Position numbers and translations under genes: made by a program. This document shows, piece after piece, positions 1,172-37,510 of a stretch of DNA of 39,026 nucleotides. The stretch's first letter is position 1. Each line of letters opens with the position of its first letter. Under the pieces are notes generated by a model. It had not been told where the DNA came from and ran no database searches. It was given only the letters and a program-made list of their open reading frames with translations. Location: the IMG/VR virus record IMGVR_UViG_3300033141_003639, positions 1 to 39,026 of that record; one strand, given 5' to 3'. This stretch comes from a virus.

Positions 1172-2746
1172 TTAAAAGAACTGAAGCCAAGTCGGCTCGT
1201 AAAGCCGATGACCCAGCTCAAATCTTTTTTGACCTTTAATGTGCTCTTTCCAGCGAAGATTTTGCGGTTCTACCCAGTAAAGCCGCAATTCCTCTTGGTT
1301 GGCGTGGGCAACAATGGCGTTCCATAAGTGCCCGCCAATGCGCTTGCCATTGGTGTAGTAATACTCGCCTCTGGCAACCCCAGCAGTGTTAACCTGAAGG
1401 GCAAGGGCGCTGAAGGCAGAAAAAAGGAAGGCGAAATTATCACAGTTATGAGCTAAATAAGCACCAGCCAAAAAGTGATGACTTTCGGTGTTAATATCAT
1501 AAACCTCTGTCTGGGCGGCATTGACAACAATTATCTTGTGAACATTTATTTTTTTAATTCGCTTCCTGTCGGGATAGAACAACACAATTGGGCAATCTTT
1601 TCTGCGAGCATAACACATACTAAACCCCCAGCCAAGATGAGCGGCAATTATTTGCAGACCGAGCACTGCTGTCGGTGATTTCACTGGCGCTGAGTAGCTG
1701 CAACTATTTTTCCTTTTTCTGAAACTCCCATCGCCATCAAGAAATCCTTTTAAAAAAGCTCGTTTTGCTTCAAGATTGGCGTTAAGAACCTCTAAAGGAA
1801 CAATTTTATATCCTCTTTGGTTGTAAAAAAGAGGTCTAAAAATCTCTGTCAACTTTCGCCCGTCTCCATAATGACCATTGATTTTCAAGCGATACATATC
1901 ATTTCTAGCCACAATTCCGCCCCGAATACTTCCTTTGCGCTGAGACGGATAAAGAACAATTTTCAATTTAATGCCGTAATGCCTTTCAAGGGCTTTTTGC
2001 GCTCTTTCCAAACTTTGCCGTTGGCGCATATCAATATGCCACTGCCAAGAAAAATTAGTCGTCTTTGTCTTTCTAACAGAAGTATGCCCCTCAGCCAAAA
2101 ATAGCCCATAAGCATAGGCAAGTTCTTTATCAAGCTCTCCATTATTTGCAAAACAAGACCAGTCACTATTGGCTAACGGCGCTTCGTTTTCATCAAAAAA
2201 AGATGCCTCTTTCCATCCTCCGCTGTAAAGGCGGTGGTCTTCGGTTATTTGTAGCAATCCTTCTGGTCGATTAAAAGTGTAAATTGGCTTATTTGTTTTT
2301 TTGCTTTTCACCCAATTAACTTTTGTCCATTGGGTGTTGCCGCTTTCAGGGTCAATGTCTAAAACTTCTAATCCCAAAGGATATTCGGGGAGCTCAACGA
2401 CTTCAGAAATAAAAACCTTGCCGTTCTGGCGGCAGACTAAAGGTGTTGTCGGCAAGAGACAATCAAACCTGTCCACTTTGTATTTTTGCCTGTCTAGCCA
2501 GCCAAAGGCAATGCTTAAAATCTCTACCCACTCGTCCCAGTTTAAGAACCAGTAATCACGGTCAAAGCGGTAAGGGACAACGCTTGTGCCAAATTGGTCG
2601 GTTAAAAACTCGCCCAGCTTCTTGCCTGAGATTTTGACTGGCTCAAAAGCAAAAGCCGATGGCATATCACGCACCACCCGCTCTAAAAACCAAAAATCTG
2701 TTTTCAGGCGCAGGTTTCTAGCTTGTTGGGGAGTAATTTTGTCCAT
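1172..2746 (-). CDS. Transglutaminase-like cysteine protein interrupted by an intein
   Basis: The ORF encodes 524 residues, of which an intein occupies residues 96-434. After splicing, a 185-residue protein remains with a transglutaminase/cysteine-protease-like core: a DCDNFAFLF motif carrying the putative catalytic Cys, then GGHLWNAIV with the His, then LYWVEPQ with the third residue. Such domains cut or cross-link peptides and amides. In phages they occur in virion or lysis proteins, but the substrate here is unknown. The gene lies between the phosphoesterase and the holin candidate. The ATG start has no clear ribosome binding site. The intein keeps the protein inactive until splicing, because the active-site Cys is the first residue after it. 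Confidence 0.7.
   Translation of the reverse strand: MDKITPQQARNLRLKTDFWFLERVVRDMPSAFAFEPVKISGKKLGEFLTDQFGTSVVPYRFDRDYWFLNWDEWVEILSIAFGWLDRQKYKVDRFDCLLPTTPLVCRQNGKVFISEVVELPEYPLGLEVLDIDPESGNTQWTKVNWVKSKKTNKPIYTFNRPEGLLQITEDHRLYSGGWKEASFFDENEAPLANSDWSCFANNGELDKELAYAYGLFLAEGHTSVRKTKTTNFSWQWHIDMRQRQSLERAQKALERHYGIKLKIVLYPSQRKGSIRGGIVARNDMYRLKINGHYGDGRKLTEIFRPLFYNQRGYKIVPLEVLNANLEAKRAFLKGFLDGDGSFRKRKNSCSYSAPVKSPTAVLGLQIIAAHLGWGFSMCYARRKDCPIVLFYPDRKRIKKINVHKIIVVNAAQTEVYDINTESHHFLAGAYLAHNCDNFAFLFSAFSALALQVNTAGVARGEYYYTNGKRIGGHLWNAIVAHANQEELRLYWVEPQNLRWKEHIKGQKRFELGHRLYEPTWLQFF
1445..2461 (-). mobile_element. Intein with LAGLIDADG homing endonuclease
   Basis: This 339-residue insertion begins with Cys (CLLPTTPLV), has a block-B-like TEDHRLY segment with its His, and ends with HN followed by Cys of the extein (LAHN then CDNF). 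These are the expected splice-junction residues. Two LAGLIDADG-type helices are visible: YGLFLAEGH and FLKGFLDGDGS. The endonuclease therefore looks intact, so the element should still be mobile. It is inserted exactly before the putative catalytic Cys of the host protein, a conserved spot of the kind inteins favour. The reading frame is open throughout. Confidence 0.9.
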
Positions 2747-2761
2747 AGGAAGAGGGGAGAA

Positions 2762-2795
2762 CGCCTCACAAGAAGATTTCTCTTTTTGCGAGGCG
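2762..2795 (-). other. Intergenic hairpin between phosphoesterase and intein gene
   Basis: A 10-bp stem (CGCCTCGCAA with TTGTGAGGCG on the minus strand, one G-T pair) and a 14-nt loop fill the short gap between the two genes. No T run follows, so it is more likely an RNA-processing or stability element than a terminator. Confidence 0.4.
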
Positions 2796-2815
2796 CTCTC
2801 TCTGGTTAAGGAAAC

Positions 2816-3727
2816 CTAGTCAAGCCGCACTTTGTAGCGGAAGGAAATGCCCTGACGGGGATGGACGCCAAAGAGCCACTGGCTGGTGGAGTTGGACAGC
2901 CCGTATTTCTTGTAGACCCACTGGTCGTCAGTAATGAAAGCGCCGTTGACAAAGATTTCCAACTCGTTCCAGTCAAGACTGGAGCAGACGTGGAAATGCC
3001 CAATGGTCAGGTAATGGAACTTCTTGCCAGGCAAACTCCCCTGCCAGCGCATTGCCCGTGTGGTCAGGCCATACCAGGGAAGGGTCAAGTGCATTGGTAT
3101 CTGGTCGCCGTGAGCCAGCAGAAATGTCCACTTGTAGATAGACACTTTCTGGTAAAAGCTGTCTTTGGCAATGGTAAAGCTGATGCGGGGTTGCTCTGCC
3201 AAGCGCAGAGCTAGGGTGCGGTAAACCACATTGTCCCAGTTGGTCTTGACAGCCGAGTAGCGCCCAAGCGAACCGTGGTTTCCGTCAACCGTATAGACAT
3301 CAATCTTGGCAAAGTGCGGCTGAAGCGAGAGAAGGAAGTCGGTCAGTGTCGGCACAGCCGAAGCAAAGACCTGCTCCATCACTACTTGTTCCAGCTCGTC
3401 CAAGCTGACAGTGCGACCCACCCTGTCATTATGGACAATATCACCGAGAGCAAAGATGGCTAGGCGGTTAATCGGAAATGCCTGGCGGTGTATCTCTACA
3501 ATCTTGACTATTCTTTCTGCCAAGCGCATAGCCCGATTGCGGACAACACGGGTCGTCGTTGTCGGCGTTAAATGCCCAATCTGCATATCGCTAAGCAGTA
3601 AGACAGCGGTTTCCTCATCCCCTCCCTGCGCTTTTGGCTCAAAAGCAGAAAGCTTTGCTGGCGGCAATGCTTCTACACGCCTCGTGATAATGCTTTCTGC
3701 TATGAGAAGCGCCTCTTCGGTTTTCAT
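2816..3727 (-). CDS. Calcineurin-like metallophosphoesterase
   Basis: A 303-residue protein with the full metallophosphoesterase motif set in order: LLLSDMQIGH (D47), ALGDIVHND (D96), VDGNHG (N150, H151), LLAHGDQ (H206) and TIGHFHV (H244, H246). These bind two metal ions. Family members act as phosphodiesterases, nucleases (SbcD/Mre11 type) or protein phosphatases, and the substrate cannot be fixed from the sequence. The ATG is preceded by a strong AAGGAGGTGA site and overlaps the stop of the 51-residue gene upstream (ATGA), so the two are probably co-translated. SbcD-like nuclease activity would fit recombination or host DNA degradation but is only an inference. Confidence 0.85.
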   Translation of the reverse strand: MKTEEALLIAESIITRRVEALPPAKLSAFEPKAQGGDEETAVLLLSDMQIGHLTPTTTTRVVRNRAMRLAERIVKIVEIHRQAFPINRLAIFALGDIVHNDRVGRTVSLDELEQVVMEQVFASAVPTLTDFLLSLQPHFAKIDVYTVDGNHGSLGRYSAVKTNWDNVVYRTLALRLAEQPRISFTIAKDSFYQKVSIYKWTFLLAHGDQIPMHLTLPWYGLTTRAMRWQGSLPGKKFHYLTIGHFHVCSSLDWNELEIFVNGAFITDDQWVYKKYGLSNSTSQWLFGVHPRQGISFRYKVRLD

Positions 3728-3879
3728 TTTTCACCTCCTTCGTCAAGGATAATCCACAGCTCCACCTCCAGCTCTTGGATTTCCTCATCGTATTCGCTGG
3801 TGCTCATAAAATCCCTAAGAGCGTAGAGCTGTGCCAACTTGCGCACCAACATCTCTTTAAGTTCAGCGTAGTTTTCCAT
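3724..3879 (-). CDS. 51-residue acidic helical protein
   Basis: A small ORF, MENYAELKEMLVRKLAQLY..., ending LWIILDEGGEK. It is rich in Glu and Leu and is predicted to be mostly helical, possibly coiled-coil. GGGAGGT stands a few bases before the ATG, and its stop overlaps the start of the phosphoesterase (ATGA). Both points strongly support that it is translated. I recognise no family. Its tight coupling suggests a partner or regulator of the phosphoesterase, which is inference only. Confidence 0.72.
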   Translation of the reverse strand: MENYAELKEMLVRKLAQLYALRDFMSTSEYDEEIQELEVELWIILDEGGEK

Positions 3880-3895
3880 CTTTTTTACCTCCCTT

Positions 3896-4036
3896 CTAGT
3901 CAAATCCTAAAACTCTCTCGTAGCGGCAGATAAGACATACCCAGCGCCACTTTTCCCAGTCCCACCTGTGCCAAGTTTTGATTGGAACTAAAGAGTGGGC
4001 AATACGGGTGCACCGCTCGCAAATTAAGCGCCTCAT
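3896..4036 (-). CDS. 46-residue zinc-ribbon-like protein
   Basis: A small ORF with two Cys pairs, CERC near residue 6 and CLIC near residue 34, spaced as in a zinc ribbon or treble-clef knuckle, with several Trp and Arg between them. AAAGGAGGTAAAG precedes the ATG. It is the first gene after an extended -10 promoter candidate at 4091. Small phage zinc ribbons often bind nucleic acid or protein partners. The exact role is unknown. Confidence 0.72.
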   Translation of the reverse strand: MRRLICERCTRIAHSLVPIKTWHRWDWEKWRWVCLICRYERVLGFD

Positions 4037-4090
4037 TTCTTTACCTCCTTTCTTTTTCTTAACTAGGTTTTGTAAAAGAACTGTTAATTT

Positions 4091-4099
4091 ATTATACCA
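4091..4099 (-). promoter_or_regulatory. Extended -10 promoter candidate for the lysis-side operon
   Basis: On the minus strand TGGTATAAT is a perfect TGN-TATAAT extended -10 element. No good -35 box lies at the usual distance, which extended -10 promoters can tolerate. Transcription would start near 4084 and read the zinc-ribbon, 51-residue and phosphoesterase genes, all of which have strong ribosome binding sites. Confidence 0.45.
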
Positions 4100-4100
4100 G

Positions 4101-4337
4101 CTATTTTCTTTTTAGAGTGTGGATAAGTTTTAGCAAACTGGCAACCAGATAAGCAACACAAGCCCCGCCAATAGCTCTCATCCACCAGATGACTTCTGTT
4201 GTCTGCGTCTCTAAAACAGCTGTCCTGACTTTAAGCATTTCTACTTCTGCCCGCAATAAGTCAACAGCTATTTTCAAAGTGCCTAACTCGTCGTTAATGA
4301 AGTTAAGTTTTTGCGTAACAAATGTCTGAAAGTCCAT
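4101..4337 (-). CDS. XhlA-like coiled-coil membrane protein (holin accessory candidate)
   Basis: A 78-residue protein. The first 50 residues form an amphipathic, probably coiled-coil helix (FINDELGTLKIAVDLLRAEVEMLKVRTAVLE). One membrane helix follows (about residues 52-70), and a short basic tail ends the protein. This layout resembles the XhlA family of Bacillus prophages, which works with a holin and amidase in lysis. GCAAGGAGG stands before the ATG. The gene starts just beside the divergent plus-strand promoter at 4354, so the two transcription units run back to back. Confidence 0.6.
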   Translation of the reverse strand: MDFQTFVTQKLNFINDELGTLKIAVDLLRAEVEMLKVRTAVLETQTTEVIWWMRAIGGACVAYLVASLLKLIHTLKRK

Positions 4338-4353
4338 TTTTCCTCCTTGCCCC

Positions 4354-4381
4354 TTGACAAGATTTTTAAAACGATTATAAT
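4354..4381 (+). promoter_or_regulatory. Consensus sigma-70 promoter of plus-strand unit A
   Basis: TTGACA at 4354-4359, a 16-bp spacer, then TATAAT at 4376-4381. Both hexamers match the consensus perfectly. It points away from the minus-strand lysis genes and should start transcription near 4388, just before the first RNA hairpin. A perfect promoter on the rare strand of a phage genome suggests expression by unmodified host polymerase, independent of the lytic programme. Confidence 0.85.
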
Positions 4382-4387
4382 TAACTT

Positions 4388-4850
4388 AAGTGAACACAAT
4401 CACTGAGGACATTGGCGGTCTCTCCTCAGTGAACCGCCTTGTCCTTTTATACCGACTGGAGATTTAAAGAAGGGGAATCGTCGGTTCACAGAAAAGTCCC
4501 TTCGCCTCTAGAAGCTCCCCTTGGCTGCGATGGTTGCCTGCCAGAGATAAACCTTACTCTGGTTTGATTGTCCATCTCGCTAAGCCCGAGCCAGTCAAGA
4601 GGAGCTACACCTTATCTTATTTTCCCTGCTGTAAAAAGAGGTATAAAAAATGGGCGACGGATAAAGGTCTCGCACTGGGCCTCCGTCCCTTCTCAACCAT
4701 AGCGTAGAGTTTGGGATAGTCAGTATGCTTAAACCTTCCCTAGAGACAAAGGATTAGCAAGGTTGAAACGGAGATACCTCTTCTTTACTTTTAAGAAACT
4801 GTTTCTGAAAAAAAACAGGTAAAACTTTTAAAAAGAACTTTCCCAGGCCA
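4388..4850 (+). ncRNA. Large structured RNA or leader of unit A
   Basis: No plausible gene is seen in 4340-4894. As plus-strand RNA the stretch folds into nested helices. There is a switch-like pair of hairpins at 4400-4444 and a hairpin 4451-4456/4480-4485. Domain II is closed by 4513-4522/4597-4606 and contains 4523-4526/4583-4586, 4529-4533/4572-4576 and 4541-4546/4557-4562. Domain III is closed by a 14-bp helix, 4631-4644/4774-4788 with one bulged C, and contains 4656-4660/4683-4687 and 4732-4737/4759-4764. The nesting of independent long-range helices is unlikely by chance. It may be an independent RNA or a roughly 500-nt leader for the ORF at 4895. I cannot match it to a known class from memory. 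Confidence 0.7.
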
Positions 4851-4855
4851 AATCG

Positions 4856-4870
4856 GTCAAGACCATTGAC
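4856..4870. promoter_or_regulatory. GTCAA-N5-TTGAC palindrome, copy 2
   Basis: GTCAAGACCATTGAC lies 24 bp before the unit A start codon and after the structured RNA. A bound protein here could block elongation, like the stoperators of mycobacteriophage L5, which is an analogy only. It belongs to the family of five perfect palindromes in this window. Confidence 0.55.
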
Positions 4871-4894
4871 GAATTTGATTAACTAACTTTAACT

Positions 4895-5080
4895 ATGGGC
4901 GCTTTACTTTACATTCTTGGTCTTGTTGGAGCGACGGCACTATTCCGTCTGCTTTTTGAAACTCCTCTGGAAGACCCTTTCCAGTATGCGGGTGATGATG
5001 ACTTTACGGACGAAGGGGAGTGGCTGGAAGAGAAGATTGAGGAGGTGGTTGACGAACGGGTTCACGACCTGCTTGATTAA
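4895..5080 (+). CDS. Unit A small membrane protein with acidic tail
   Basis: A 61-residue ORF: MGALLYILGLVGATALFRLLF forms one N-terminal membrane helix, and the remainder is strongly acidic (for example EGEWLEEKIEEVVDERVHD). It is one of only two credible plus-strand genes. No Shine-Dalgarno site precedes the ATG, so translation may depend on the structured leader. Its last 77 bp overlap the 3' end of the minus-strand gene 5004-6695. A clean intrinsic terminator follows 40 bp later, which supports a real unit. The family is unknown. Size and topology would suit superinfection exclusion or another membrane-acting moron product, but that is a guess. Confidence 0.55.
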   Translation: MGALLYILGLVGATALFRLLFETPLEDPFQYAGDDDFTDEGEWLEEKIEEVVDERVHDLLD

Positions 5081-6695
5081 TCATCCTAATTAGCAAAATT
5101 ATACTTTCTCTAGAAATCCGCCCTGCAGCATCAGCAGGGATTTTTTCTATTAAATCAGCCAGTTGGTCAAGCCCAATAGCAAAACCGCTCTGGACTGCGG
5201 GGTGCATAACCGCTCTTCTAGCCACAATAGCTGGAATATCAAACTTGCCGCCAGGAATAGCCAAAGCAACCGCCAAATCGCTAATGCCTACCAATCCCTT
5301 CTTTTCTGCCTTAGCAGCTGCGTTAACAAGCAATTTCCTAGCATTTATTAACTCACTCATATCACTAAAGAACGGCTCAGTCGGCGTGTTTCTCTTGACA
5401 GTGTTTCTGGCCACTCTCGCCAAGTCCTTGATTGACCCCCTAATGGCTGAACTGACAGCGTCGCCTTCATAAGCTCGTGAGCCAAGAATCTCGTGGTCTA
5501 GCAGGCGGCGGAAATTATTGAGTTCCGCATAGGTCAACTCTGGCTTATCCATCAGGTCAAAAACTTCTTGGCGGCGGGATAATCTTACCCGATTGGCTAC
5601 TTGCTGAATAAACTTATCATCGGGCTGTGGTGTGCCGATTGCTTCCTGATAAATCTTGCTCATATCCACCAGCATCCGCTTGCGCAGCTCGCCCACTGTT
5701 TCGTTCAGTGATGTGGCAGCGGCATTCCATTCCCGCTGGGTTAATCTTTCAGAAATCCAAGTCTGAAAATCGTCTAAACTATCAAAGGAATCTGGCGCTT
5801 GGGCAATCAGCGCTTTTAATTTTTGCGGTAGTCTCTTGGGGCCTTTTCTTAGTCCGCTCTCAAACTTTCTTGCCACATCATTAAGAAGTTTGGAAACCTC
5901 CTCGTGGTCAACAATACTTTGCCTTCGGAGGGCGTCTTGGATTGCCAACTCATCAGCTTCTATGCCGTCTCCGACCTCCCGCAAAATCTTGCCATACGAC
6001 CCCCATATTTTTCTGTCCAAGAGCGCTCTTACCCCTGTTTTGCCTCTGGCTAGCGATTTTTGTGTTGCCCTTTCCAAGCGCTGAACAACTTTTTCAGCCG
6101 TTTTCTTAATAGCCGGCCCCACATATTTTTTGACTATTTTCCCAACGCCAAAAGCACCTGCCCCTAGCGCCGCTGAAGTAAATCCTGATAGAAGTGTTTG
6201 GGCAACTACTTCCTGCGGGGGTTTTTCCTCCTCAATGGCTGTTGCCAGCCCGCTGGCAGCGCCCAGTGCTCCTGCCTGCCGCACAACACCACCAATAGTT
6301 TTAGCTGCTGGCAAACCAGCGCCAACCAATGTAGTAGTTGTCTGCAGCGCTCCACCTGCCAATTGTTGGGCAGTCGGAATATCCTCATAAATTTTGGCAT
6401 ATGCCTCATAATCTTCTGGTGTTGCTTGGCCGCTGGCAATGCGCCGTTCAAGTTCTCGTCCTTCAGGAGTAAGGTGGCGGAAAATTGCCAGCCCCAGTCC
6501 CTTGCCTAAGCGCTCTACTCCAGTCACCTTGCCCAGAAAGGTAAGTGCTCTTTCTCCAAAGGGTTTTTCCCTTTCTGGAGTAATCGGCAAACGCCTTTCT
6601 ACTGGCTGGCCGCTGACAAAAGAAAAGTCGCCTTTGGGAGCGCCAACAGCAGGTGGAAGGGTGATTGGTTTTCCAGATTGAAAATCAAAAGCCAT
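5004..6695 (-). CDS. Large helical protein, candidate internal virion / ejection protein
   Basis: A 563-residue protein. The N-terminal part (FDFQSGKPI... with repeated FSFVSGQP) is polar. Next comes an Ala/Gly-rich, probably membrane-active region (about residues 105-185, with LVGAGLPAAKTIGGV and LLSGFTSAALGAGAFGVGKI), then a long charged helical region. Such proteins placed after tail genes in short-tailed phages are often ejected into the host envelope with the DNA. I recognise no enzyme domain. It directly follows 6699-8501 with a 3-bp gap, so the two are probably co-expressed. The proline-rich C-terminal tail overlaps the plus-strand unit A gene. Confidence 0.7.
   Translation of the reverse strand: MAFDFQSGKPITLPPAVGAPKGDFSFVSGQPVERRLPITPEREKPFGERALTFLGKVTGVERLGKGLGLAIFRHLTPEGRELERRIASGQATPEDYEAYAKIYEDIPTAQQLAGGALQTTTTLVGAGLPAAKTIGGVVRQAGALGAASGLATAIEEEKPPQEVVAQTLLSGFTSAALGAGAFGVGKIVKKYVGPAIKKTAEKVVQRLERATQKSLARGKTGVRALLDRKIWGSYGKILREVGDGIEADELAIQDALRRQSIVDHEEVSKLLNDVARKFESGLRKGPKRLPQKLKALIAQAPDSFDSLDDFQTWISERLTQREWNAAATSLNETVGELRKRMLVDMSKIYQEAIGTPQPDDKFIQQVANRVRLSRRQEVFDLMDKPELTYAELNNFRRLLDHEILGSRAYEGDAVSSAIRGSIKDLARVARNTVKRNTPTEPFFSDMSELINARKLLVNAAAKAEKKGLVGISDLAVALAIPGGKFDIPAIVARRAVMHPAVQSGFAIGLDQLADLIEKIPADAAGRISRESIILLIRMINQAGREPVRQPPPQSSLPATPLRP
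5121..5146 (+). terminator. Rho-independent terminator of unit A
   Basis: CCCTGC (5121-5126) and GCAGGG (5134-5139) form a 6-bp GC-rich stem with a 7-nt loop, followed by ATTTTTT. It sits 40 bp after the unit A ORF and points on the plus strand, inside the coding region of the opposite minus-strand gene. It makes unit A a self-contained transcription unit of roughly 750 nt. Confidence 0.8.
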
Positions 6696-6698
6696 ATT

Positions 6699-8501
6699 TT
6701 ATGGGGTTAGAAGAATATATCCTTGATTAAGGGCATCAGCAAGGTCTTCTGGGGAAAGATTGTCCCATTGCCTTATTTCGCCTGTTCTGGGGTCTTGGAG
6801 GATAATCGGTTTAGCGGTTTTAGCTTCTTCCCCGCCAACACCCAGATTTCTTTTATAGATAGTTTCCAGCTCCTGACGATAGTTTACCAAGCGGCTTAAG
6901 TTCTCTTTTTCATCGTAGGTGATTTTAGGCACACTGCCCCTTTCAATGCGGGCAATTTCTTGGGCTGGCAAGACCTTGCCGCCAATACTAAAGAGTTTTT
7001 CTGTAGCAATATCGCCAAGCAGCGCTTCAAATTCACGCTGTCTTTCGTTTCTAAACGGGTGGAAGGGGCTGTATTTGCCAATAGCAGAGAGAGCGGCTCT
7101 AACCGGGCCAGTGGCTACTTCGCCAGCTTTCAGCCACTCAATTGCCTTGTCAATCCTTGAAAGATTATATAGAGCTTCAGCAGCCACCTCCCTTTCTGCT
7201 TTCGTTTTTGGCTTATCAAGCCCTGTATCTACCCACCTTCCCGTAGCTGTATCCCATTGGAAAATACCCTCATCGGTTGTTAGCGTCTTTGGTGCTGGGA
7301 TAGTCGTGCTGGCTAATTTAGCTAACTCCATTTCCATATCAAATGCCTCCAGTGCTGCTTGCCGTTCGCCAGCAATCCTGATGGCTTCATCAACGCTTTT
7401 CGGCATTCCATAGCCAATAAAAGCAGCTGGGTCTTTTGCCATAATAGCAGTAATAGCATCTAACTCTTTTATCGCTTGCTCGTATTCTCGCCTTTCTCCT
7501 TCTTCGGCTCTATCAAGCTGCCTTTTAAACATTTCTAGTTGAATTGCTTCTTCTGTATCAGCTTCTTGCATTAAAAGGTCGATAGCCAAACGCTGGTTTT
7601 CCCGCTCTTCTTCTCTCATTTTCATCTCCAGCCCCAAAACAGTGTTTGCTCTTTCAACAGCCCTGTCATAATCGCCCATCAAGGCCTCTCTTTCCATCAA
7701 TAGTCCCTGCCTCTTAATTTCATATTGGCGATAAGCCAGCGCTTCCTGTCCCCTTAAAATGCCGCCCGGATATGGCTGCGCCATAATTTGTTCGCGCTGA
7801 AGTCGATATTGGGTGTCCAGTTGAGCTAGTTTTTGGTCTAATTCAGTTACCTTTTCAGGCAGTTCTGGATAAAGACGGTCAATTATTTGCTGGGCAGTTT
7901 CAGTTGAGCTGGTTGCTAAAATGTCTTTGATGTCTTGAGCAAGGTCGCCCCTGATATTTTGGATATTTTTCAGCAAATCGTTAACAATCTCTTGGTGGTT
8001 AATCGCTGGCGGCTTTGGTTCAGTGTCTTCAATTTTAATCAACCGCCCGTGTTCAGGGTCACGAATATATCCTTCAGGCACTTCTGGCTCTTCTTCTCTT
8101 TCTCTTGCTGTGGTTGTTGGCCTAGCTGCCGAAACAGCTGCCTGAACTTTAGGGGTTAAGCCGCTGATTGTTTGAGAAATTCGCTGGATTTCCTGCTGGA
8201 TAGCTGCCATTTTTTCTTCTCGGCTCATTGGCGCTTCAGGAGCTAAGACGCTTTCAGCGGGAATTTCAGCTGGTATAGCAGCGCTGGGGCCTGCAAACTC
8301 CTGCAGGCGCTCCTCTCCTATGTCTCTAAAAAAAAGAGGTTCACCTAGTTCCATTGTGCTTCTGCCTAGAAAACGACTTAAAAATCCTCCAGCTCCAGCT
8401 TTTACCAGTTCAGGGCTTGGCCAAACTGGCACGCCTTCTGGGGATGTCTCGCCTAGGTCAGAAACACCTTGTTTTCTCATCATTTCTCCTAGTGTGGGCA
8501 T
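6699..8501 (-). CDS. Long coiled-coil structural protein, candidate internal virion protein
   Basis: A 600-residue protein dominated by charged helical segments: heptad-like stretches at about residues 90-125, 170-235 and 255-380, including the Glu/Arg-rich RAEEGERREYEQA region. The N-terminus begins with MPTLGEMMRKQGVSDLG. I see no catalytic motif. Its place between tail genes and the second large helical protein (5004-6695) suggests a virion component injected with DNA or a short tape-measure-like protein. I cannot choose between these by sequence. Confidence 0.65.
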   Translation of the reverse strand: MPTLGEMMRKQGVSDLGETSPEGVPVWPSPELVKAGAGGFLSRFLGRSTMELGEPLFFRDIGEERLQEFAGPSAAIPAEIPAESVLAPEAPMSREEKMAAIQQEIQRISQTISGLTPKVQAAVSAARPTTTAREREEEPEVPEGYIRDPEHGRLIKIEDTEPKPPAINHQEIVNDLLKNIQNIRGDLAQDIKDILATSSTETAQQIIDRLYPELPEKVTELDQKLAQLDTQYRLQREQIMAQPYPGGILRGQEALAYRQYEIKRQGLLMEREALMGDYDRAVERANTVLGLEMKMREEERENQRLAIDLLMQEADTEEAIQLEMFKRQLDRAEEGERREYEQAIKELDAITAIMAKDPAAFIGYGMPKSVDEAIRIAGERQAALEAFDMEMELAKLASTTIPAPKTLTTDEGIFQWDTATGRWVDTGLDKPKTKAEREVAAEALYNLSRIDKAIEWLKAGEVATGPVRAALSAIGKYSPFHPFRNERQREFEALLGDIATEKLFSIGGKVLPAQEIARIERGSVPKITYDEKENLSRLVNYRQELETIYKRNLGVGGEEAKTAKPIILQDPRTGEIRQWDNLSPEDLADALNQGYILLTP

Positions 8502-30461: not shown

Positions 30462-30469
30462 AAAGATAG

Positions 30470-30484
30470 GTCAATGCCATTGAC
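30470..30484. promoter_or_regulatory. GTCAA-N5-TTGAC palindrome, copy 4, at the terminase start
   Basis: GTCAATGCCATTGAC lies 8 bp before the terminase ATG. Counting flanking bases it is a perfect 17-bp palindrome, GGTCAATG and CATTGACC around a central C. It is the most operator-like of the five copies by position. Confidence 0.6.
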
Positions 30485-30955
30485 CAAACCCTTGTAAAGA
30501 TTTCCCTCTTGTAAAGATTTCCCTCTTGTCAGATTTCTCCCTACTGTGTGGGGGGACTAACTCTTATTATTCCCTTCTGTTAAGGAGGGGTGTAGGGGGT
30601 ATTCCTATACCCTTCCTATAATCGTTTCTAAGGGCTTCTATGGGGTCTCTAAGGCGTTTTTATCAGTTAAGTTATTATTTCATCAGTAAAAGTATCTATT
30701 CCCTGTTCTGTTAGTTAAACTCTCTCGAGGGTTTATCTTAAGAAAAGGGTTTTCAAGAGGGTTTTCTTGGTAGTTTGTCTAAAAAAGGGGTGTGTATGAG
30801 AGGAAAGTTACCTCCCCCTCTTGCCTCCGTTGGTCTAGCTAGTATTAATCCGCTCTACTTAGCGTTAATCCTTATATGGATAAGTTAAGTTAAAATTCTG
30901 TTTTTGTTCCTTATCTTTGTTCTTTTTCTCTCTGCTTTTTCTGTCTGCGGGAAAG
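30485..30955. other. 471-bp non-coding gap between terminase genes, with tandem repeats and hairpins
   Basis: No plausible gene is seen here. Three 17-18 bp tandem copies of CTTGTAAAGATTTCCCT (30491-30542, the third imperfect) come first. Hairpins follow at 30597-30602/30607-30612, 30717-30723/30728-30734, 30740-30746/30762-30768 and 30844-30854/30861-30869. The region could hold a packaging start (cos/pac), replication iterons or another structured RNA. No strong promoter was found on either strand. Confidence 0.55.
30491..30542. repeat. Three 17-bp tandem repeats
   Basis: CTTGTAAAGATTTCCCT occurs twice in perfect tandem and a third time as a diverged 18-bp copy. The array starts 6 bp from the terminase operator. 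It could be a protein-binding array for terminase or a regulator. Confidence 0.75.
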
Positions 30956-31435: not shown

Positions 31436-31450
31436 GTCAAGGGTCTTGAC
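31436..31450. promoter_or_regulatory. GTCAA-N5-TTGAC palindrome, copy 5, on the unit B -35 box
   Basis: GTCAAGGGTCTTGAC overlaps the TTGACA -35 box of the unit B promoter at 31446, so a protein bound here would block polymerase. It is the clearest repressor-site position in the window. A DnaA-box-like TTTTCCACA lies 10 bp upstream. Confidence 0.65.
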
Positions 31451-31473
31451 AAATGTTTTTTTCTGCGTATAAT
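31446..31473 (+). promoter_or_regulatory. Consensus sigma-70 promoter of plus-strand unit B
   Basis: TTGACA at 31446-31451, a 16-bp spacer, TATAAT at 31468-31473. Both hexamers are perfect and the spacer length equals that of unit A. Transcription should start near 31480. The -35 box is shared with a 15-bp palindrome, which suggests repression. Confidence 0.85.
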
Positions 31474-31479
31474 GGAAAT

Positions 31480-31770
31480 GAAGGATAAAAAGTCCTTTCA
31501 CAACTAAAAAGTCGCAAACCTTGCAAGCTTGCTCTTGAGAGACAAAACACGGCAGGCAGGCTGGCAGGCAAAAAAAACTCTTGCCTTTTACACTGGCTCT
31601 AGTTATAATCAAAAGCCGAAAGTGTCAAAGGAGTTAAAAGTCCGCCTCTTGCTCGCTTGTTCGTGTCTTATCTCAAGTTATCGCCGCTTTAGCGGGGATA
31701 ATGCCGTAAAGGCACGGCAGGCTTGCAGGGGGCGGGCTTTTAAGTTATCACTAGCACTTTAAACAAAAAA
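31480..31770 (+). ncRNA. Structured RNA or leader of unit B
   Basis: Several helices are seen as plus-strand RNA: 31481-31485/31493-31497, then 31584-31598/31614-31631 (about 14 bp with one mismatch and a bulge). A 19-bp long-range helix, 31634-31652/31725-31743, has only three non-Watson-Crick positions, all G-U. Inside it lie hairpins 31678-31687/31692-31701 and 31703-31707/31714-31718. G-U pairs at every deviation are what selection on RNA structure would leave. An overlapping 77-codon ORF here is judged spurious. Whether this is an RNA in its own right or a leader for the next ORF is open. Confidence 0.7.
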
Positions 31771-31771
31771 T

Positions 31772-31927
31772 ATGTTCCAATACAAAAACGGCAGCCACGA
31801 AGAGACAAAAGTCTTTCTCCGCCTCTCGCTCCTGCTCAATTTTGCTCAATCAATTGGCGTCATTGTCCTTGTCTGGCTCTTGCTAAGAGCTGCTGACCTG
31901 ATTGACGCATTGGTTGTTTGCCAATAA
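31772..31927 (+). CDS. Unit B small membrane protein
   Basis: A 51-residue ORF, MFQYKNGSHEETKVF... It has a polar N-terminus and one long hydrophobic segment, then a short acidic/hydrophobic end (ADLIDALVVCQ). It follows the structured RNA, has no Shine-Dalgarno site, and is closed by a strong terminator 6 bp later. It is a functional match in size, topology and setting to the unit A ORF, though the sequences do not align. The family is unknown. Exclusion, toxin or envelope roles are possible guesses. Confidence 0.58.
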   Translation: MFQYKNGSHEETKVFLRLSLLLNFAQSIGVIVLVWLLLRAADLIDALVVCQ

Positions 31928-31931
31928 GCAG

Positions 31932-31962
31932 CTAAAAACCGCCTTTTGATGGCGGTTTTTAG
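31932..31962 (+). terminator. Strong bidirectional terminator of unit B
   Basis: CTAAAAACCGCC and GGCGGTTTTTAG form a perfect 12-bp stem with a 7-nt loop. T runs lie on both strands, so it can stop transcription from unit B and also from the early minus-strand operon. It separates the early genes from the packaging genes. Confidence 0.85.
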
Positions 31963-32256: not shown

Positions 32257-32753
32257 TTTTTAATTGATAAACTTAATGCCTCTTTTAACTTTTGCTTTGC
32301 CAGCTCCAGCTTTTGCCTATCTTCTTGGCTAAAGTTTTTTGTCCTTAATCCTTTAAGGGCACTGTATTTTTTGCTTAACTCTTCAAATCGGGCAATATCG
32401 CAAATGCTAAAAGAAAAATAATTGTTTTCTTTGTCTACCTTGATAATGCCCAAATCAGCCAGCCACCTGAAAAAAAGGCAGCTTTTCTCTGGCAATAAAT
32501 CTTTTTTTTGCTCCACCCAGTTGGCAAACCTTTTTTCAAGCTCCAGCAGCTCGGTTTCACTATAAAGTGCCTCGTCGGCCAAAACCGCCTTTTCTAAACT
32601 AATGCCTTTGAGGTCTTGGCGCTTAAAAAACTCATCACCAACAGAAACAATCTCGCTTAACCTGCCCGTCAGCCAAGCATCCTTTATCTTCTCTGCTGCT
32701 TGACTGGCAACCTCAAGCGGGCTAACTCTGCCTTTTAAATAAATCTTTGCCAT
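32253..32753 (-). CDS. Unknown early protein, helical
   Basis: A 166-residue protein, mostly helical and charged (YLKGRVSPLEVASQAAEKIKD, LLELEKRFANWVEQKKDLLP, FEELSKKYSALKG), with a short beta stretch near LGIIKVDKENNYFSFS. I recognise no family. The gene sits between the zinc-ribbon gene and the CxxC protein at 32755, with a 4-bp overlap on one side and a 1-bp gap on the other. A role in DNA replication or regulation is possible by context only. Confidence 0.62.
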   Translation of the reverse strand: MAKIYLKGRVSPLEVASQAAEKIKDAWLTGRLSEIVSVGDEFFKRQDLKGISLEKAVLADEALYSETELLELEKRFANWVEQKKDLLPEKSCLFFRWLADLGIIKVDKENNYFSFSICDIARFEELSKKYSALKGLRTKNFSQEDRQKLELAKQKLKEALSLSIKK

Positions 32754-32754
32754 T

Positions 32755-33492
32755 TTAGTAGTAACCCACCTGCGGCTTATCTTTTTTAGCCAAAAACTCG
32801 GGCATTTTCTTTTTCACTGTGCCGATGTTCCAGTTTTCTTTCCACTCCTCATCTTTTTGGTTTAACCACTCCATACACCTGATAATGTCAACAGGCGTCC
32901 TTTCGCTCATAAACATTGTTTTAATGTCCTGATGAACTGGCTTAAACTCCTCGCCTTTTAACTCAATGCCTTTTAGCTCCTGATACTTGGCAATCACCTG
33001 CCAATACCAGTCACGGGGGAACTGAATAGCTTGCCTTTTTTTCTTTTCACTCGGCGGACGGGGGTCAGCATACCAAGTCTTGCCGCAGTCAGCGCAAATA
33101 TACTTTGGCACCATCTGAACCTCCATCTTTAAATGCTTGCACTCTTTGGGCTTGGGCAAATACTTGGAAACAATCTTGCTCCAGCTGATATTCTGCCCTT
33201 CAGGCAGCTGGTAAATGCTCTCAAACTTGGGGAACTTCTCATAAAACAGAATCGCATACTTGATAGTTGTCTCGCTTTTGCCCAATGACTTGGCAATTGT
33301 TCTTACTAGGCGCTGGCCATAAAGCTGGCTGCGGGTAAAGTTTTCTTTTTCTTGGCTAATCCGTTTGCCGACGAAGTAATAAGTTTTGAGCAATGTTTCC
33401 CGATAATGCTTAATGCCTTCGCCAATAACAGCATTTAGGTCATCAATCAATGATTGATACCATTCGGCTTTAAAAAGGGATTTGTTTTTCAT
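32755..33492 (-). CDS. DUF1016-N-like / replication-associated protein candidate
   Basis: A 245-residue protein. The N-terminal part (YRETLLKTYYFVGKRISQEK, then YGQRLVRTIAKSLGKSETTIKYAILFYEKFP) resembles the DUF1016 N-terminal (YhcG-like) pattern and may bind DNA. A middle segment with C-K-H and CADC suggests a zinc knuckle. The C-terminal part (RTPVDIIRCMEWLNQKDEEWKENWNIGTVKKKMPEFL) recalls phage helicase-loader or replisome-organiser tails. These are pattern impressions; a replication role is inferred. The start is ATG 33492 rather than the upstream TTG. Confidence 0.45.
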   Translation of the reverse strand: MKNKSLFKAEWYQSLIDDLNAVIGEGIKHYRETLLKTYYFVGKRISQEKENFTRSQLYGQRLVRTIAKSLGKSETTIKYAILFYEKFPKFESIYQLPEGQNISWSKIVSKYLPKPKECKHLKMEVQMVPKYICADCGKTWYADPRPPSEKKKRQAIQFPRDWYWQVIAKYQELKGIELKGEEFKPVHQDIKTMFMSERTPVDIIRCMEWLNQKDEEWKENWNIGTVKKKMPEFLAKKDKPQVGYY

Positions 33493-34197: not shown

Positions 34198-35268
34198 CTA
34201 AGTCCTTTTCTCTGGCTTGTAATTAAGGTTAAAAAGCTCCAAGCGGTAAGCTTTTGTCATTGCCTCTTGCGGTGTCTTTACATCAGGGGCGACTCTGATA
34301 TAGACATCCTCGCCTTCGCTGGGGTCAAGGGCTTTGTAAAACACATAAGGGTCGCCGACCGTGTCTTTCATCTTGTTTAAACGGATAAGCTCGCCGTATT
34401 GGTCTTTAGCAAAAGTTTCACCGCCTAGTTCAGCTATCATCTTAGCCGCTCCCAGATATTTTAAAGCTACTAGCCGCTGCTCGCTGTTTTCTAGTTTAAA
34501 TGCTTCTTTGGCTGGAAGGGTCTTGCCAACTATCTTTTGCCACAAGTCTTTTTCAAAACGAATGCCGTCTAGAAAGTAAAATCCTGTGCCATCCTTCCAA
34601 CCGATAGCTGGCTTGGTCTGGCTGGACAGTTCACCATTAACCCACAGGCACTGGGGTTTTTCTACCACAAAAACGGCATTGCCAACAAAAACGCAAATAG
34701 GCAGATTGAGCAGAATATCAAAAAACTTTTTCAAAAGTTTTCCATTAAACTCAACCCCGATATATTTTCCGTAATTATAAATCCCAGCCCATTCGTAGAG
34801 GTAATAAGAAGTATAAAAATTATAGTCGCTGTTTTTAAGCTGGGAGTGAAGCTGGGATTCAAGCTGGGAGCTAAGCTGGGAGTAAAGCTGGAAGTCAAGC
34901 TGTAAGTAAAGCTGGGAACGAAGCTGGAAGTCAAGCTGTAAGTAAAGCTGGGAGCGAAGCTGGGATTCAAGCTGTAAGTAAAGCTGGGAGTCAAGCTGGG
35001 AGTCAAGCTGAGAGTGAAGCTGGAAGCTAAGCTGGCTATTTCCTTTTTTTATTTTCTCTGCCCCAGCCGACTTTAAAGCAACGGCAATAAGCCCCATTGT
35101 ATTTTCCAAAGACTCCCCGAAAAAAACCAATGGCTTTTCTTTTGCCCAGATTTCACCTGCCAGCTTCCTTGCCTTGTCTCTATCAATCGGCTGGGAGGCA
35201 AGAGATATCCACTTGACAATATATTCTGGGATTTTGCTCTCTTGTTCTTTGCTAATTGAATTAATCAT
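34198..35268 (-). CDS. DUF6745-like protein with tetrapeptide repeats
   Basis: A 356-residue protein. After an N-terminal helical part, residues 78-145 consist of about 17 four-residue units of the type xQLx (SQL[D/Y/E/R/H/S] or LQL/FQL). The part after the repeat (YYLYEWAGIYNYGKYIG, KPAIGWKDGTGFYFLDGIRFEKDLWQKIV, then NSEQRLVALKYLG, then VAPDVKTPQEAMTKAYRLE) fits my memory of DUF6745 proteins. These are uncharacterised; repeats of the same type are, as far as I recall, known in that family. Function is unknown. The HNH gene lies 2 bp upstream. Confidence 0.62.
   Translation of the reverse strand: MINSISKEQESKIPEYIVKWISLASQPIDRDKARKLAGEIWAKEKPLVFFGESLENTMGLIAVALKSAGAEKIKKGNSQLSFQLHSQLDSQLDSQLYLQLESQLRSQLYLQLDFQLRSQLYLQLDFQLYSQLSSQLESQLHSQLKNSDYNFYTSYYLYEWAGIYNYGKYIGVEFNGKLLKKFFDILLNLPICVFVGNAVFVVEKPQCLWVNGELSSQTKPAIGWKDGTGFYFLDGIRFEKDLWQKIVGKTLPAKEAFKLENSEQRLVALKYLGAAKMIAELGGETFAKDQYGELIRLNKMKDTVGDPYVFYKALDPSEGEDVYIRVAPDVKTPQEAMTKAYRLELFNLNYKPEKRT
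34834..35037 (-). repeat. 12-bp repeat array, about 17 units
   Basis: Units of 12 bp such as AAGCTGGGAGTC or AAGCTGTAAGTA, each encoding xQLx, run in tandem without a frame break. Because the unit is a multiple of 3 and lacks stop codons, a second reading frame also stays open. The units vary at the fourth residue (Asp, Tyr, Glu, Arg, His, Ser), so the array is not freshly duplicated. Confidence 0.85.
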
Positions 35269-36907: not shown

Positions 36908-37510
36908 TCAGACCTTTTTTAATTGATGCCCGTGCTTTTTCTTTGATTTCAAATACTTTTCATTGTGGCTGTTAGGAGCAACTTCGTGGCTTTGCCTGCG
37001 CACCTTAATGCCCATTGCCTCAATAGCTTTAATCTTGCTTGGATTATTGGTCATTAAAACCACCTCTTTCACATTAAAATCGCCCAGCGCCTCACCAACA
37101 ATGCGGTATTCTCTATTGTCATCTGGCAACCCAAGCATCCTGTTTGCCTCATAGGTATCAAAACCCCTTTCTTTTAAAGCATACGCCCTGATTTTATTGG
37201 TCAAGCCAATGTCTCTGCCTTCTTGAAAAAGATAGAAAATGCCGCCTCTGGCCTTTTTGGCCTCTTGCATTGCTTTTGCTAGTTGCTCGTGGCAATCGCA
37301 TAAGCTAGAAAAAAGAATATCGCCAGTAATACAGCTAGAGTGGATGCGGATAAGCAATGGCTTTTTTGTGTCTGCTTTAGGGTGAAGCAGGAAAATGTGC
37401 TCTTTGCCAGTAATCTTATGGCGGTAAACATAAAGCCGCCAATCGCCATACTTTGTGCTTAACTGGCATTCAGCTGAAACCTCATAAAATCTAACTTTTT
37501 GGTTGTTCAT
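36908..37510 (-). CDS. GTP cyclohydrolase II homologue
   Basis: A 200-residue enzyme of the RibA GTP cyclohydrolase II type. RIHSSCITGDILFSSLCDC carries the zinc Cys residues (C60, C71, C73) with the spacing seen in E. coli RibA. YLFQEGRDIGLTNKIRAYAL is the substrate-binding segment, and TYEANRMLGLP and MTNNPSKIKAIEAMGI follow as usual. The enzyme opens the GTP ring and releases formate and pyrophosphate, giving the first riboflavin precursor. A phage copy without other riboflavin genes suggests another use, such as a modified nucleotide. Its neighbour 37536 supports this idea. Confidence 0.82.
   Translation of the reverse strand: MNNQKVRFYEVSAECQLSTKYGDWRLYVYRHKITGKEHIFLLHPKADTKKPLLIRIHSSCITGDILFSSLCDCHEQLAKAMQEAKKARGGIFYLFQEGRDIGLTNKIRAYALKERGFDTYEANRMLGLPDDNREYRIVGEALGDFNVKEVVLMTNNPSKIKAIEAMGIKVRRQSHEVAPNSHNEKYLKSKKKHGHQLKKV

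What the first reader, a model, noticed from the sequence alone, without database searches (positions are those of the whole stretch)
4354..5146. Plus-strand unit A: perfect promoter, a roughly 400-nt structured RNA, a tiny membrane protein and a terminator, against the grain of the whole genome
The only leftward-free stretch in this part of the phage holds a sigma-70 consensus promoter and three RNA domains closed by independent long-range helices, including a 14-bp helix spanning 4631-4788 and a 10-bp helix spanning 4513-4606. A 61-residue membrane protein without Shine-Dalgarno and a clean intrinsic terminator follow. A large ornate RNA with its own promoter in a phage recalls classes such as GOLLD or ROOL, but I see no match to them. 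It may be a new phage RNA class or an unusually large cis-regulatory leader.
Basis: partly seen in the sequence, partly recalled or inferred. Interest (0 to 1): 0.92.

Follow-up and report, generated by a model that had tools for sequence, protein, structure and literature searches.

The report
Backward phage unit for tiny protein
In this 39-kb phage, one small unit is read against the direction of nearly all other genes: it has a perfect host-type promoter and makes a tiny membrane protein, as the same spot does in related phages, while the supposed giant structured RNA in front of that gene is real non-coding sequence found only here, with no firm evidence yet of a special fold.

Summary
The promoter is real: TTGACA-16-TATAAT, 12/12, 4354-4381(+); only two such sites exist in the window, about 0.06 expected. 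4468-4894 is non-coding on both strands. The 61-aa ORF is real by codon statistics. Its missing Shine-Dalgarno is normal for this phage. The large ornate RNA is not supported. Folding energy is unremarkable against this genome's own 400-nt windows. The "14-bp helix" has pairing probability about 0 in the full-length ensemble. There is no Rfam match and no homologue, so covariation cannot be tested. What is new is synteny. Three sister phages carry an equivalent anti-grain unit at the same junction, convergent with a very long gene (internal-virion-protein type in two) and divergent from a small coiled-coil/membrane gene; a fourth has a looser version. There the tiny membrane ORF starts 8 nt after the -10 box (leaderless). 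The window has a GTG at that same spacing, opening a 25-codon ORF with coding-like statistics, then about 427 nt of unique non-coding DNA, then the 61-aa ORF. I read unit A as a moron-like, host-promoter-driven membrane-protein unit with a lineage-specific leader. A related RNA family with compensatory changes exists at the other promoter type (unit B) in relatives.

The parts
4354..4381 (+). sigma-70 promoter TTGACA-16-TATAAT, 12/12; inferred start of transcription about 4388
   Evidence: shares CTTGACAAGATTTTT with the promoters at 7007(+) and about 4239(-) of sister phage G034
4390..4467 (+). 25-codon ORF (GTG) MNTITEDIGGLSSVNRLVLLYRLEI, 8 nt after the -10 box, i.e. where the leaderless membrane ORFs of G028, G029 and G034 start; possible leader peptide
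   Evidence: codon score 0.32, above all 357 open antisense stretches; 28 of 2305 stop-free shuffles reach it
4400..4432 (+). 10-bp hairpin TCACTGAGGA/TCCTCAGTGA; forms first during transcription, antiterminator-like
   Evidence: (3 of 300 shuffles)
4405..4446 (+). competing hairpin GAGGACA..GGCGGT/ACCGCC..TGTCCTT followed by TTTTATA; terminator-like (-18.5 kcal/mol) but not better than shuffles
4468..4894 (+). non-coding stretch unique to this phage; inferred 5' leader of the 61-aa ORF
   Evidence: absent from relatives
4513..4606 (+). stem-loop domain closed by AGCTCC/GGAGCT plus CTTGGCTG/CAGTCAAG (pairing probability about 0.97)
   Evidence: z -2.88
4371..4395 (+). left copy of a 25-nt imperfect direct repeat (18/25) flanking the non-coding stretch; right copy 4869-4893
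   Evidence: 6 of 2000 shuffles; post hoc
4856..4870 (.). palindrome GTCAAGACCATTGAC, one of five exact GTCAA-N5-TTGAC sites in the window
4895..5080 (+). 61-aa protein: N-terminal membrane segment (residues 4-21) and strongly acidic tail; overlaps the 3' end of the 563-aa gene by 77 nt
5121..5146 (+). intrinsic-terminator-like hairpin CCCTGCAGCATCAGCAGGG-ATTTTTT
4101..4337 (-). divergent 78-aa coiled-coil plus C-terminal membrane gene; same position and architecture as 65-71-aa genes of G028, G029, G034, but no detectable sequence similarity
5004..6695 (-). convergent 563-aa gene, positional equivalent of the 905-987-aa genes of sister phages (internal virion protein family in G028, G029)
   Evidence: (E 0.013 to G029)
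2816..3727 (-). metallophosphoesterase/exonuclease gene downstream of the divergent gene, as in G028, G029, G034
31446..31962 (+). unit B: second 12/12 promoter, about 290-nt leader (200-nt window z -10.8), 51-aa membrane ORF 31772-31927, strong terminator

Best explanation
Unit A is this phage's version of a recurrent, moron-like transcription unit that lies against the gene direction between a long gene of the internal-virion-protein region and a small coiled-coil/membrane (XhlA-like position) gene. Host sigma-70 RNA polymerase reads it from a near-perfect promoter, independently of the leftward phage operon, to make a tiny single-span membrane protein. In sister phages the membrane ORF begins at the mRNA's 5' end (leaderless). 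Here a 25-codon leaderless ORF holds that place, a lineage-specific stretch of about 427 nt follows, and the membrane ORF is the second cistron. Inferred, not shown: the leader tunes output, most simply by transcription attenuation at the 5' alternative hairpins under control of translation of the short ORF; the membrane protein acts on the host envelope early or constitutively (superinfection exclusion or control of lysis).
For: 12/12 promoter, 0.06 expected. Units at the equivalent position: G028 53-aa ORF 4452-4291(-) between a 987-aa internal virion protein gene and a 68-aa coiled-coil/membrane gene; G029 45- and 55-aa ORFs 33029-32720(-) between a 905-aa gene and a 71-aa gene; G034 43-aa ORF 4204-4073(-) between a 930-aa gene and a 65-aa gene; a looser case in G026, a 22-aa membrane peptide. 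G028 and G029 membrane proteins are homologous (48%, E 8e-12), as are the divergent genes of G028, G029, G034, G022. Window and G034 promoters share 15 identical bases CTTGACAAGATTTTT. Start spacing of 8 nt after the -10 box is shared. Codon statistics support the 61-aa ORF and the 25-codon ORF.
Against: The window's 61-aa, 78-aa and 563-aa proteins show no significant similarity to their positional equivalents, so orthology rests on order, orientation, promoter sequence and protein architecture. The 5' attenuator hairpin is no better than shuffles. A hydrophobic segment alone is weak evidence: 12 of 43 + strand ORFs of 40-75 aa have one. GC content is not distinct. No expression data, host not established.
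Confidence: 0.62

Rival explanations
1. A new class of large structured phage RNA (about 400-500 nt) that works as an RNA, with the 61-aa ORF incidental.
For: Non-coding on both strands; z -3.4 over 507 nt with 0 of 100 shuffles as stable; a robust 94-nt stem-loop domain; a 10-bp hairpin rare in shuffles.
Confidence: 0.12
2. Translation-coupled attenuator: the leaderless 25-codon ORF is a leader peptide; ribosome position decides between hairpin 4400-4432 and terminator-like hairpin 4405-4446, setting read-through to the 61-aa ORF.
For: ORF at the conserved start spacing covers both hairpins; codon score exceeds all open antisense controls and 98.8% of stop-free shuffles; the two hairpins are mutually exclusive and switch order during elongation; several other promoters of the group are followed by strong terminator-like hairpins before the first gene.
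Against: The terminator-like hairpin is not better than shuffles and its U-tract is weak (TTTTATAC); it does not explain the remaining 400 nt; no homologue.
Confidence: 0.25
3. The 427-nt stretch is decayed or filler DNA: an ancestral leaderless unit was interrupted by an insertion or lost its first membrane ORF, and the present 'RNA' has no function.
For: Relatives have no leader and G029 has two tandem membrane ORFs; a 25-nt imperfect repeat flanks the stretch (6 of 2000 shuffles); unremarkable folding.
Against: No trace of coding similarity in any frame; functionless 400-nt stretches are rare in this compact genome; the flanking repeat was found post hoc.
Confidence: 0.3
4. Type I toxin-antitoxin module: small membrane toxin with a long structured leader silenced by an antisense RNA.
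For: Tiny membrane protein, long folded leader, own promoter and terminator.
Against: No minus-strand promoter-like site of 9/12 or better in 3500-6000; the start region from about 4878 is predicted unpaired; strongly acidic tail (net charge about -14) unlike Hok-type toxins (own knowledge).
Confidence: 0.05
5. Antisense regulator: the plus-strand transcript 4388-5146 collides with or pairs to the leftward late mRNA (3' end of the 563-aa gene and the intergenic region) and lowers its read-through into the lysis-side genes.
For: The transcript is convergent and overlaps the 563-aa gene by at least 77 nt in the window, and sister units are convergent too.
Against: Coding overlaps in G028 and G029 are only about 24 and 4 nt, and the encoded membrane proteins of G028 and G029 are conserved as proteins.
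Confidence: 0.1

Closest known systems
Phage 'morons' (small independently transcribed genes, as described for example in PMC6469090)
   Same: Own sigma-70 promoter and terminator-like hairpin, opposite orientation to neighbouring genes, small membrane product.
   Different: Present at the same junction in several related phages, so not evidently a recent acquisition; GC not distinct; expression in lysogeny unknown; long leader.
ROOL and GOLLD RNAs (PMC12286853)
   Same: Phage-borne long non-coding stretch with its own promoter.
   Different: No Rfam match, no tRNA nearby, no covariation data, unremarkable folding energy, followed directly by a translated ORF; GOLLD often exceeds 800 nt.
HK022 put leader RNAs (PMC9378689)
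   Same: Structured RNA directly downstream of a strong phage sigma-70 promoter.
   Different: put is about 70 nt with two stem-loops and suppresses termination over kilobases; unit A ends within 760 nt and its 5' hairpins are mutually exclusive.
Leaderless small membrane ORF units of sister phages G028, G029, G034 (this work)
   Same: Same junction, same anti-grain orientation, same promoter type, tiny membrane protein, start 8 nt after the -10 box.
   Different: No 427-nt non-coding stretch; proteins not recognisably similar in sequence to the 61-aa protein.
Leader-peptide attenuators
   Same: Short ORF over mutually exclusive hairpins.
   Different: Terminator hairpin not above chance; no amino-acid codon run; large extra leader.

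Membership tests
Phage moron (independent transcription unit) | Own host-type promoter | tested here: met
   12/12
Phage moron (independent transcription unit) | Own intrinsic terminator | tested here: inconclusive
   Hairpin 5121-5146 present (-9.7 kcal/mol) but not above shuffles
Phage moron (independent transcription unit) | Transcribed independently of neighbours | tested here: inconclusive
   Opposite strand to all neighbouring genes; no RNA data
Phage moron (independent transcription unit) | Horizontally acquired, distinct composition | tested here: not met
   GC near 47% like flanks; unit at the same junction in relatives. Hence called moron-like, not a moron
Phage moron (independent transcription unit) | Expressed from the prophage, dispensable for lytic growth | not testable with these tools
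   no expression or genetic data
GOLLD / ROOL | Match to the Rfam covariance model | tested here: not met
GOLLD / ROOL | Location near tRNA genes (frequent) | tested here: not met
   no tRNA in the window
GOLLD / ROOL | Covariation-supported elaborate fold | not testable with these tools
   no homologue of the stretch found
Type I toxin-antitoxin | Antisense RNA promoter opposite the toxin mRNA | tested here: not met
   no minus-strand site of 9/12 or better in 3500-6000
Leader-peptide attenuator | Translated short ORF over the switch | tested here: inconclusive
   25-codon ORF with coding-like score; translation unproven
Leader-peptide attenuator | Intrinsic terminator before the structural gene | tested here: inconclusive
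   -18.5 kcal/mol hairpin with TTTTATAC; shuffle mean -15.6
Leaderless anti-grain membrane-ORF unit of sister phages | Junction, orientation and start spacing | tested here: met
Leaderless anti-grain membrane-ORF unit of sister phages | Sequence homology of the membrane protein | tested here: not met

The most novel reading that the evidence does not exclude
The 427-507-nt leader is a new phage cis-regulatory RNA: a leaderless leader-peptide ORF over mutually exclusive hairpins followed by two folded domains, inserted between a conserved promoter and a conserved-position membrane-protein gene, and controlling it.
Probability: 0.15. Interest if true: 0.68.

Novelty: new variant of a known kind. 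Interest (0 to 1): 0.42.

Why it matters
It turns a one-off curiosity into a comparable locus. Several phages of a poorly known group, probably infecting a phylum of small-genome bacteria (a relative's phage contig is binned in a phylum whose sampled genomes are mostly 0.7-1.4 Mb), keep a host-promoter-driven, leaderless, tiny membrane protein reading against their genome. One of them has a long leader there. That gives a clean natural comparison for testing what a long 5' leader does, and a candidate set of tiny envelope-acting phage proteins. It also guards against naming a new ornate RNA class from folding by eye.

Tried and rejected
Rfam at gathering and at E 10: only chance hits. DNA similarity in phage and plasmid records: none; in the 20 records behind the terminase relatives: only matches of 14-20 bases. 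Close relatives of the 61-aa, 563-aa, 78-aa and 600-aa proteins in IMG/VR: none. A 17-nt RNA piece in IMG/VR: one chance hit in a 411-kb contig. 344 genomes of the phylum of a relative's host bin: only AT-rich fragments at query 400-456. Reading the non-coding stretch in six frames against all loci: nothing. Unit A as a member of the unit B leader family: no similarity and no strong terminator. DnaA box upstream of unit A as in the relatives: none within 60 nt. Strain variation as a structure test: the near-identical contig L002 covers only unit B, with one change in the promoter spacer. Profile comparison of the 78-aa protein with its positional equivalents: no match.

Full report
What is in the sequence. 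The promoter 4354-4381(+) is a 12/12 sigma-70 consensus with a 16-nt spacer. Only two such sites exist in the 39,026 bases on both strands (spacers 15-19), against 0.06 expected from third-order Markov sequences. Both are on the plus strand in a genome whose genes otherwise run on the minus strand. The second site heads unit B (31446-31962: promoter, about 290-nt leader, 51-aa membrane ORF, strong terminator). Codon scores trained on 28 of the phage's own genes show no large coding frame on either strand from 4382 to 4894. They show a real gene at 4895-5080: 0.52 against at most 0.18 for every other plus-strand ATG ORF of 45-100 aa, and 0 of 271 stop-free shuffles. The lack of a Shine-Dalgarno is normal here: among the upstream sequences printed, only two genes have a clear one.

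The RNA claim. The 507-nt leader folds better than 100 shuffles (z -3.4). But the genome's own 400-nt windows have mean z -0.95, SD 1.65, and the opposite strand of the leader folds as well as the plus strand. The base-pair ensemble supports the stem-loop 4513-4606 and gives the 14-bp helix 4631-4644/4774-4788 a probability near zero, because 4465-4475 pairs with its 3' arm. Among helices, the 10-bp hairpin 4400-4409/4423-4432 is unusual (3 of 300 shuffles); the best long-range helix is not (146 of 300). This hairpin competes with a terminator-like hairpin 4405-4446. In step-by-step folding the first dominates up to 4436 and the second from 4440. The second is not stronger than shuffles give. 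No homologue of the stretch was found, so covariation cannot be tested. Nothing in Rfam matches. The structured-RNA reading is open but unproven.

What relatives show. A promoter-shaped pattern scan brought in phages with genomes of 36-42 kb, most of which share terminase, portal or other modules with the window. In three of them an anti-grain unit lies at one junction: long gene, then tiny membrane ORF(s) on the other strand, promoter, divergent small coiled-coil/membrane gene, then phosphoesterase. G028: 987-aa gene 1351-4314(+), 53-aa ORF 4452-4291(-), promoter 4489(-), 68-aa gene 4510-4716(+). G029: 905-aa gene, 55-aa and 45-aa ORFs 32720-33029(-), promoter 33066(-), 71-aa gene 33086-33301(+). 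G034: 930-aa gene, 43-aa ORF 4073-4204(-), a weaker promoter reading TTGACA-17-TAGGAT just upstream, 65-aa gene 4255-4452(+). The long genes of G028 and G029 belong to internal-virion-protein families, pointing to podovirus-type particles. In G033 the small coiled-coil gene is XhlA/haemolysin-like and precedes an endolysin-like gene, so this is the lysis side. G026 shows a looser version with a 22-aa membrane peptide. G022 has the small gene but no anti-grain unit.

The window has the same order and orientation (5004-6695, 4895-5080, promoter 4354, 4101-4337, 2816-3727). Its promoter shares CTTGACAAGATTTTT with the two G034 promoters. Sequence similarity of the proteins is not detectable apart from a weak 563-aa/905-aa match (E 0.013), so I call the units positional equivalents rather than proven orthologues.

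The leader is the difference. In G028, G029 and G034 the start codon lies 8 nt after the -10 hexamer, so the mRNA is predicted to be leaderless. In the window a GTG lies at exactly this spacing and opens 25 codons, MNTITEDIGGLSSVNRLVLLYRLEI. Its codon score exceeds all 357 open antisense stretches and equals the median of sense segments; 28 of 2305 stop-free shuffles reach it. About 427 unique nucleotides follow. A 25-nt imperfect repeat (4371-4395, 4869-4893) flanks the stretch (6 of 2000 shuffles), compatible with an insertion into an originally leaderless unit, but found post hoc.

Mechanism. Shown: promoter, ORFs, synteny, lack of the leader in relatives. Inferred: host polymerase reads the unit independently of the leftward operon; the product is a small envelope protein, perhaps for exclusion or lysis control; the leader may attenuate output. 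Not shown: any transcript, any function, the host. A related phage contig (L088) is binned in a genome whose phylum sample has mostly 0.7-1.4 Mb genomes, which suggests Patescibacteria; this is inference.

Side result. At the other promoter type of these phages (unit B position; upstream of the terminase genes in L004) three relatives share a leader RNA of about 270 nt. Its consensus fold has 20 of 70 pairs with changes on both sides (three sequences only, RNAalifold-derived), and it ends in terminators of -58 to -65 kcal/mol against shuffle means of -15 to -19. That, rather than unit A, is the better candidate for a new phage RNA family. A DnaA-box sequence lies within 60 nt upstream of 12 of 25 strong promoters, against roughly 0.3 expected from the box density (the expectation is my arithmetic).

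Verdict. A real, conserved-position anti-grain membrane-protein unit with a unique leader; not, on present evidence, a new giant RNA.

Noticed in passing
L217:19365-19632(-), L219:11770-12062(-), L004:1055-1342(-); possibly window 31474-31772(+): Leader RNA of about 270 nt after a strong divergent promoter (near the terminase genes in L004 and the window): two tandem terminator-like hairpins, long 5'-3' pairing, 20 of 70 consensus pairs with compensatory double changes in three phages. A candidate new phage RNA family; window unit B leader has z -10.8 in a 200-nt window.
   Followed up: partly
G028 4489 and 19666, G029 33066 and 12096, G030 364, G026 3654 and 5358, L088 3924, window 31446 and others: DnaA-box-like TTWTCCAC lies 8-40 nt upstream of the -35 of 12 of 25 strong sigma-70 promoters in this phage group, about 0.3 expected.
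   Followed up: partly
window 932, 4856, 19199, 30470, 31436: Palindrome GTCAA-N5-TTGAC, five exact copies (six within one mismatch, 1.1 expected); one overlaps the -35 of unit B, one lies 25 nt before the 61-aa ORF. Possible repressor operator.
   Followed up: partly
L088:3924-3515(-): Another anti-grain unit: DnaA box, TTGACA-17-TACAAT, then 50- and 41-aa membrane ORFs between plus-strand genes, upstream of the terminase genes; contig labelled Firmicutes but its phylum sample has mostly 0.7-1.4 Mb genomes.
   Followed up: partly
window 1172-2746(-): Gene carrying an in-frame LAGLIDADG insert that looks like an intein.
   Followed up: no
L005:6359-6591: Group I intron in a relative's contig.
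   Followed up: no
window 30462-30955: 494-nt non-coding, pyrimidine-rich gap upstream of the terminase gene with a repeated GTAAAGATTTCCCTCTT; possible origin or late leader.
   Followed up: no
window 36908-37510(-): Phage-borne GTP cyclohydrolase II gene.
   Followed up: no
window 34198-35268(-): DUF6745 protein with a long QLxSQL-type repeat.
   Followed up: no
L167 (G032:24039), L142 (G030:364): Same promoter type followed by a strong terminator-like hairpin near the first gene (-42.7 and -26.6 kcal/mol) with an alternative upstream pairing partner.
   Followed up: partly
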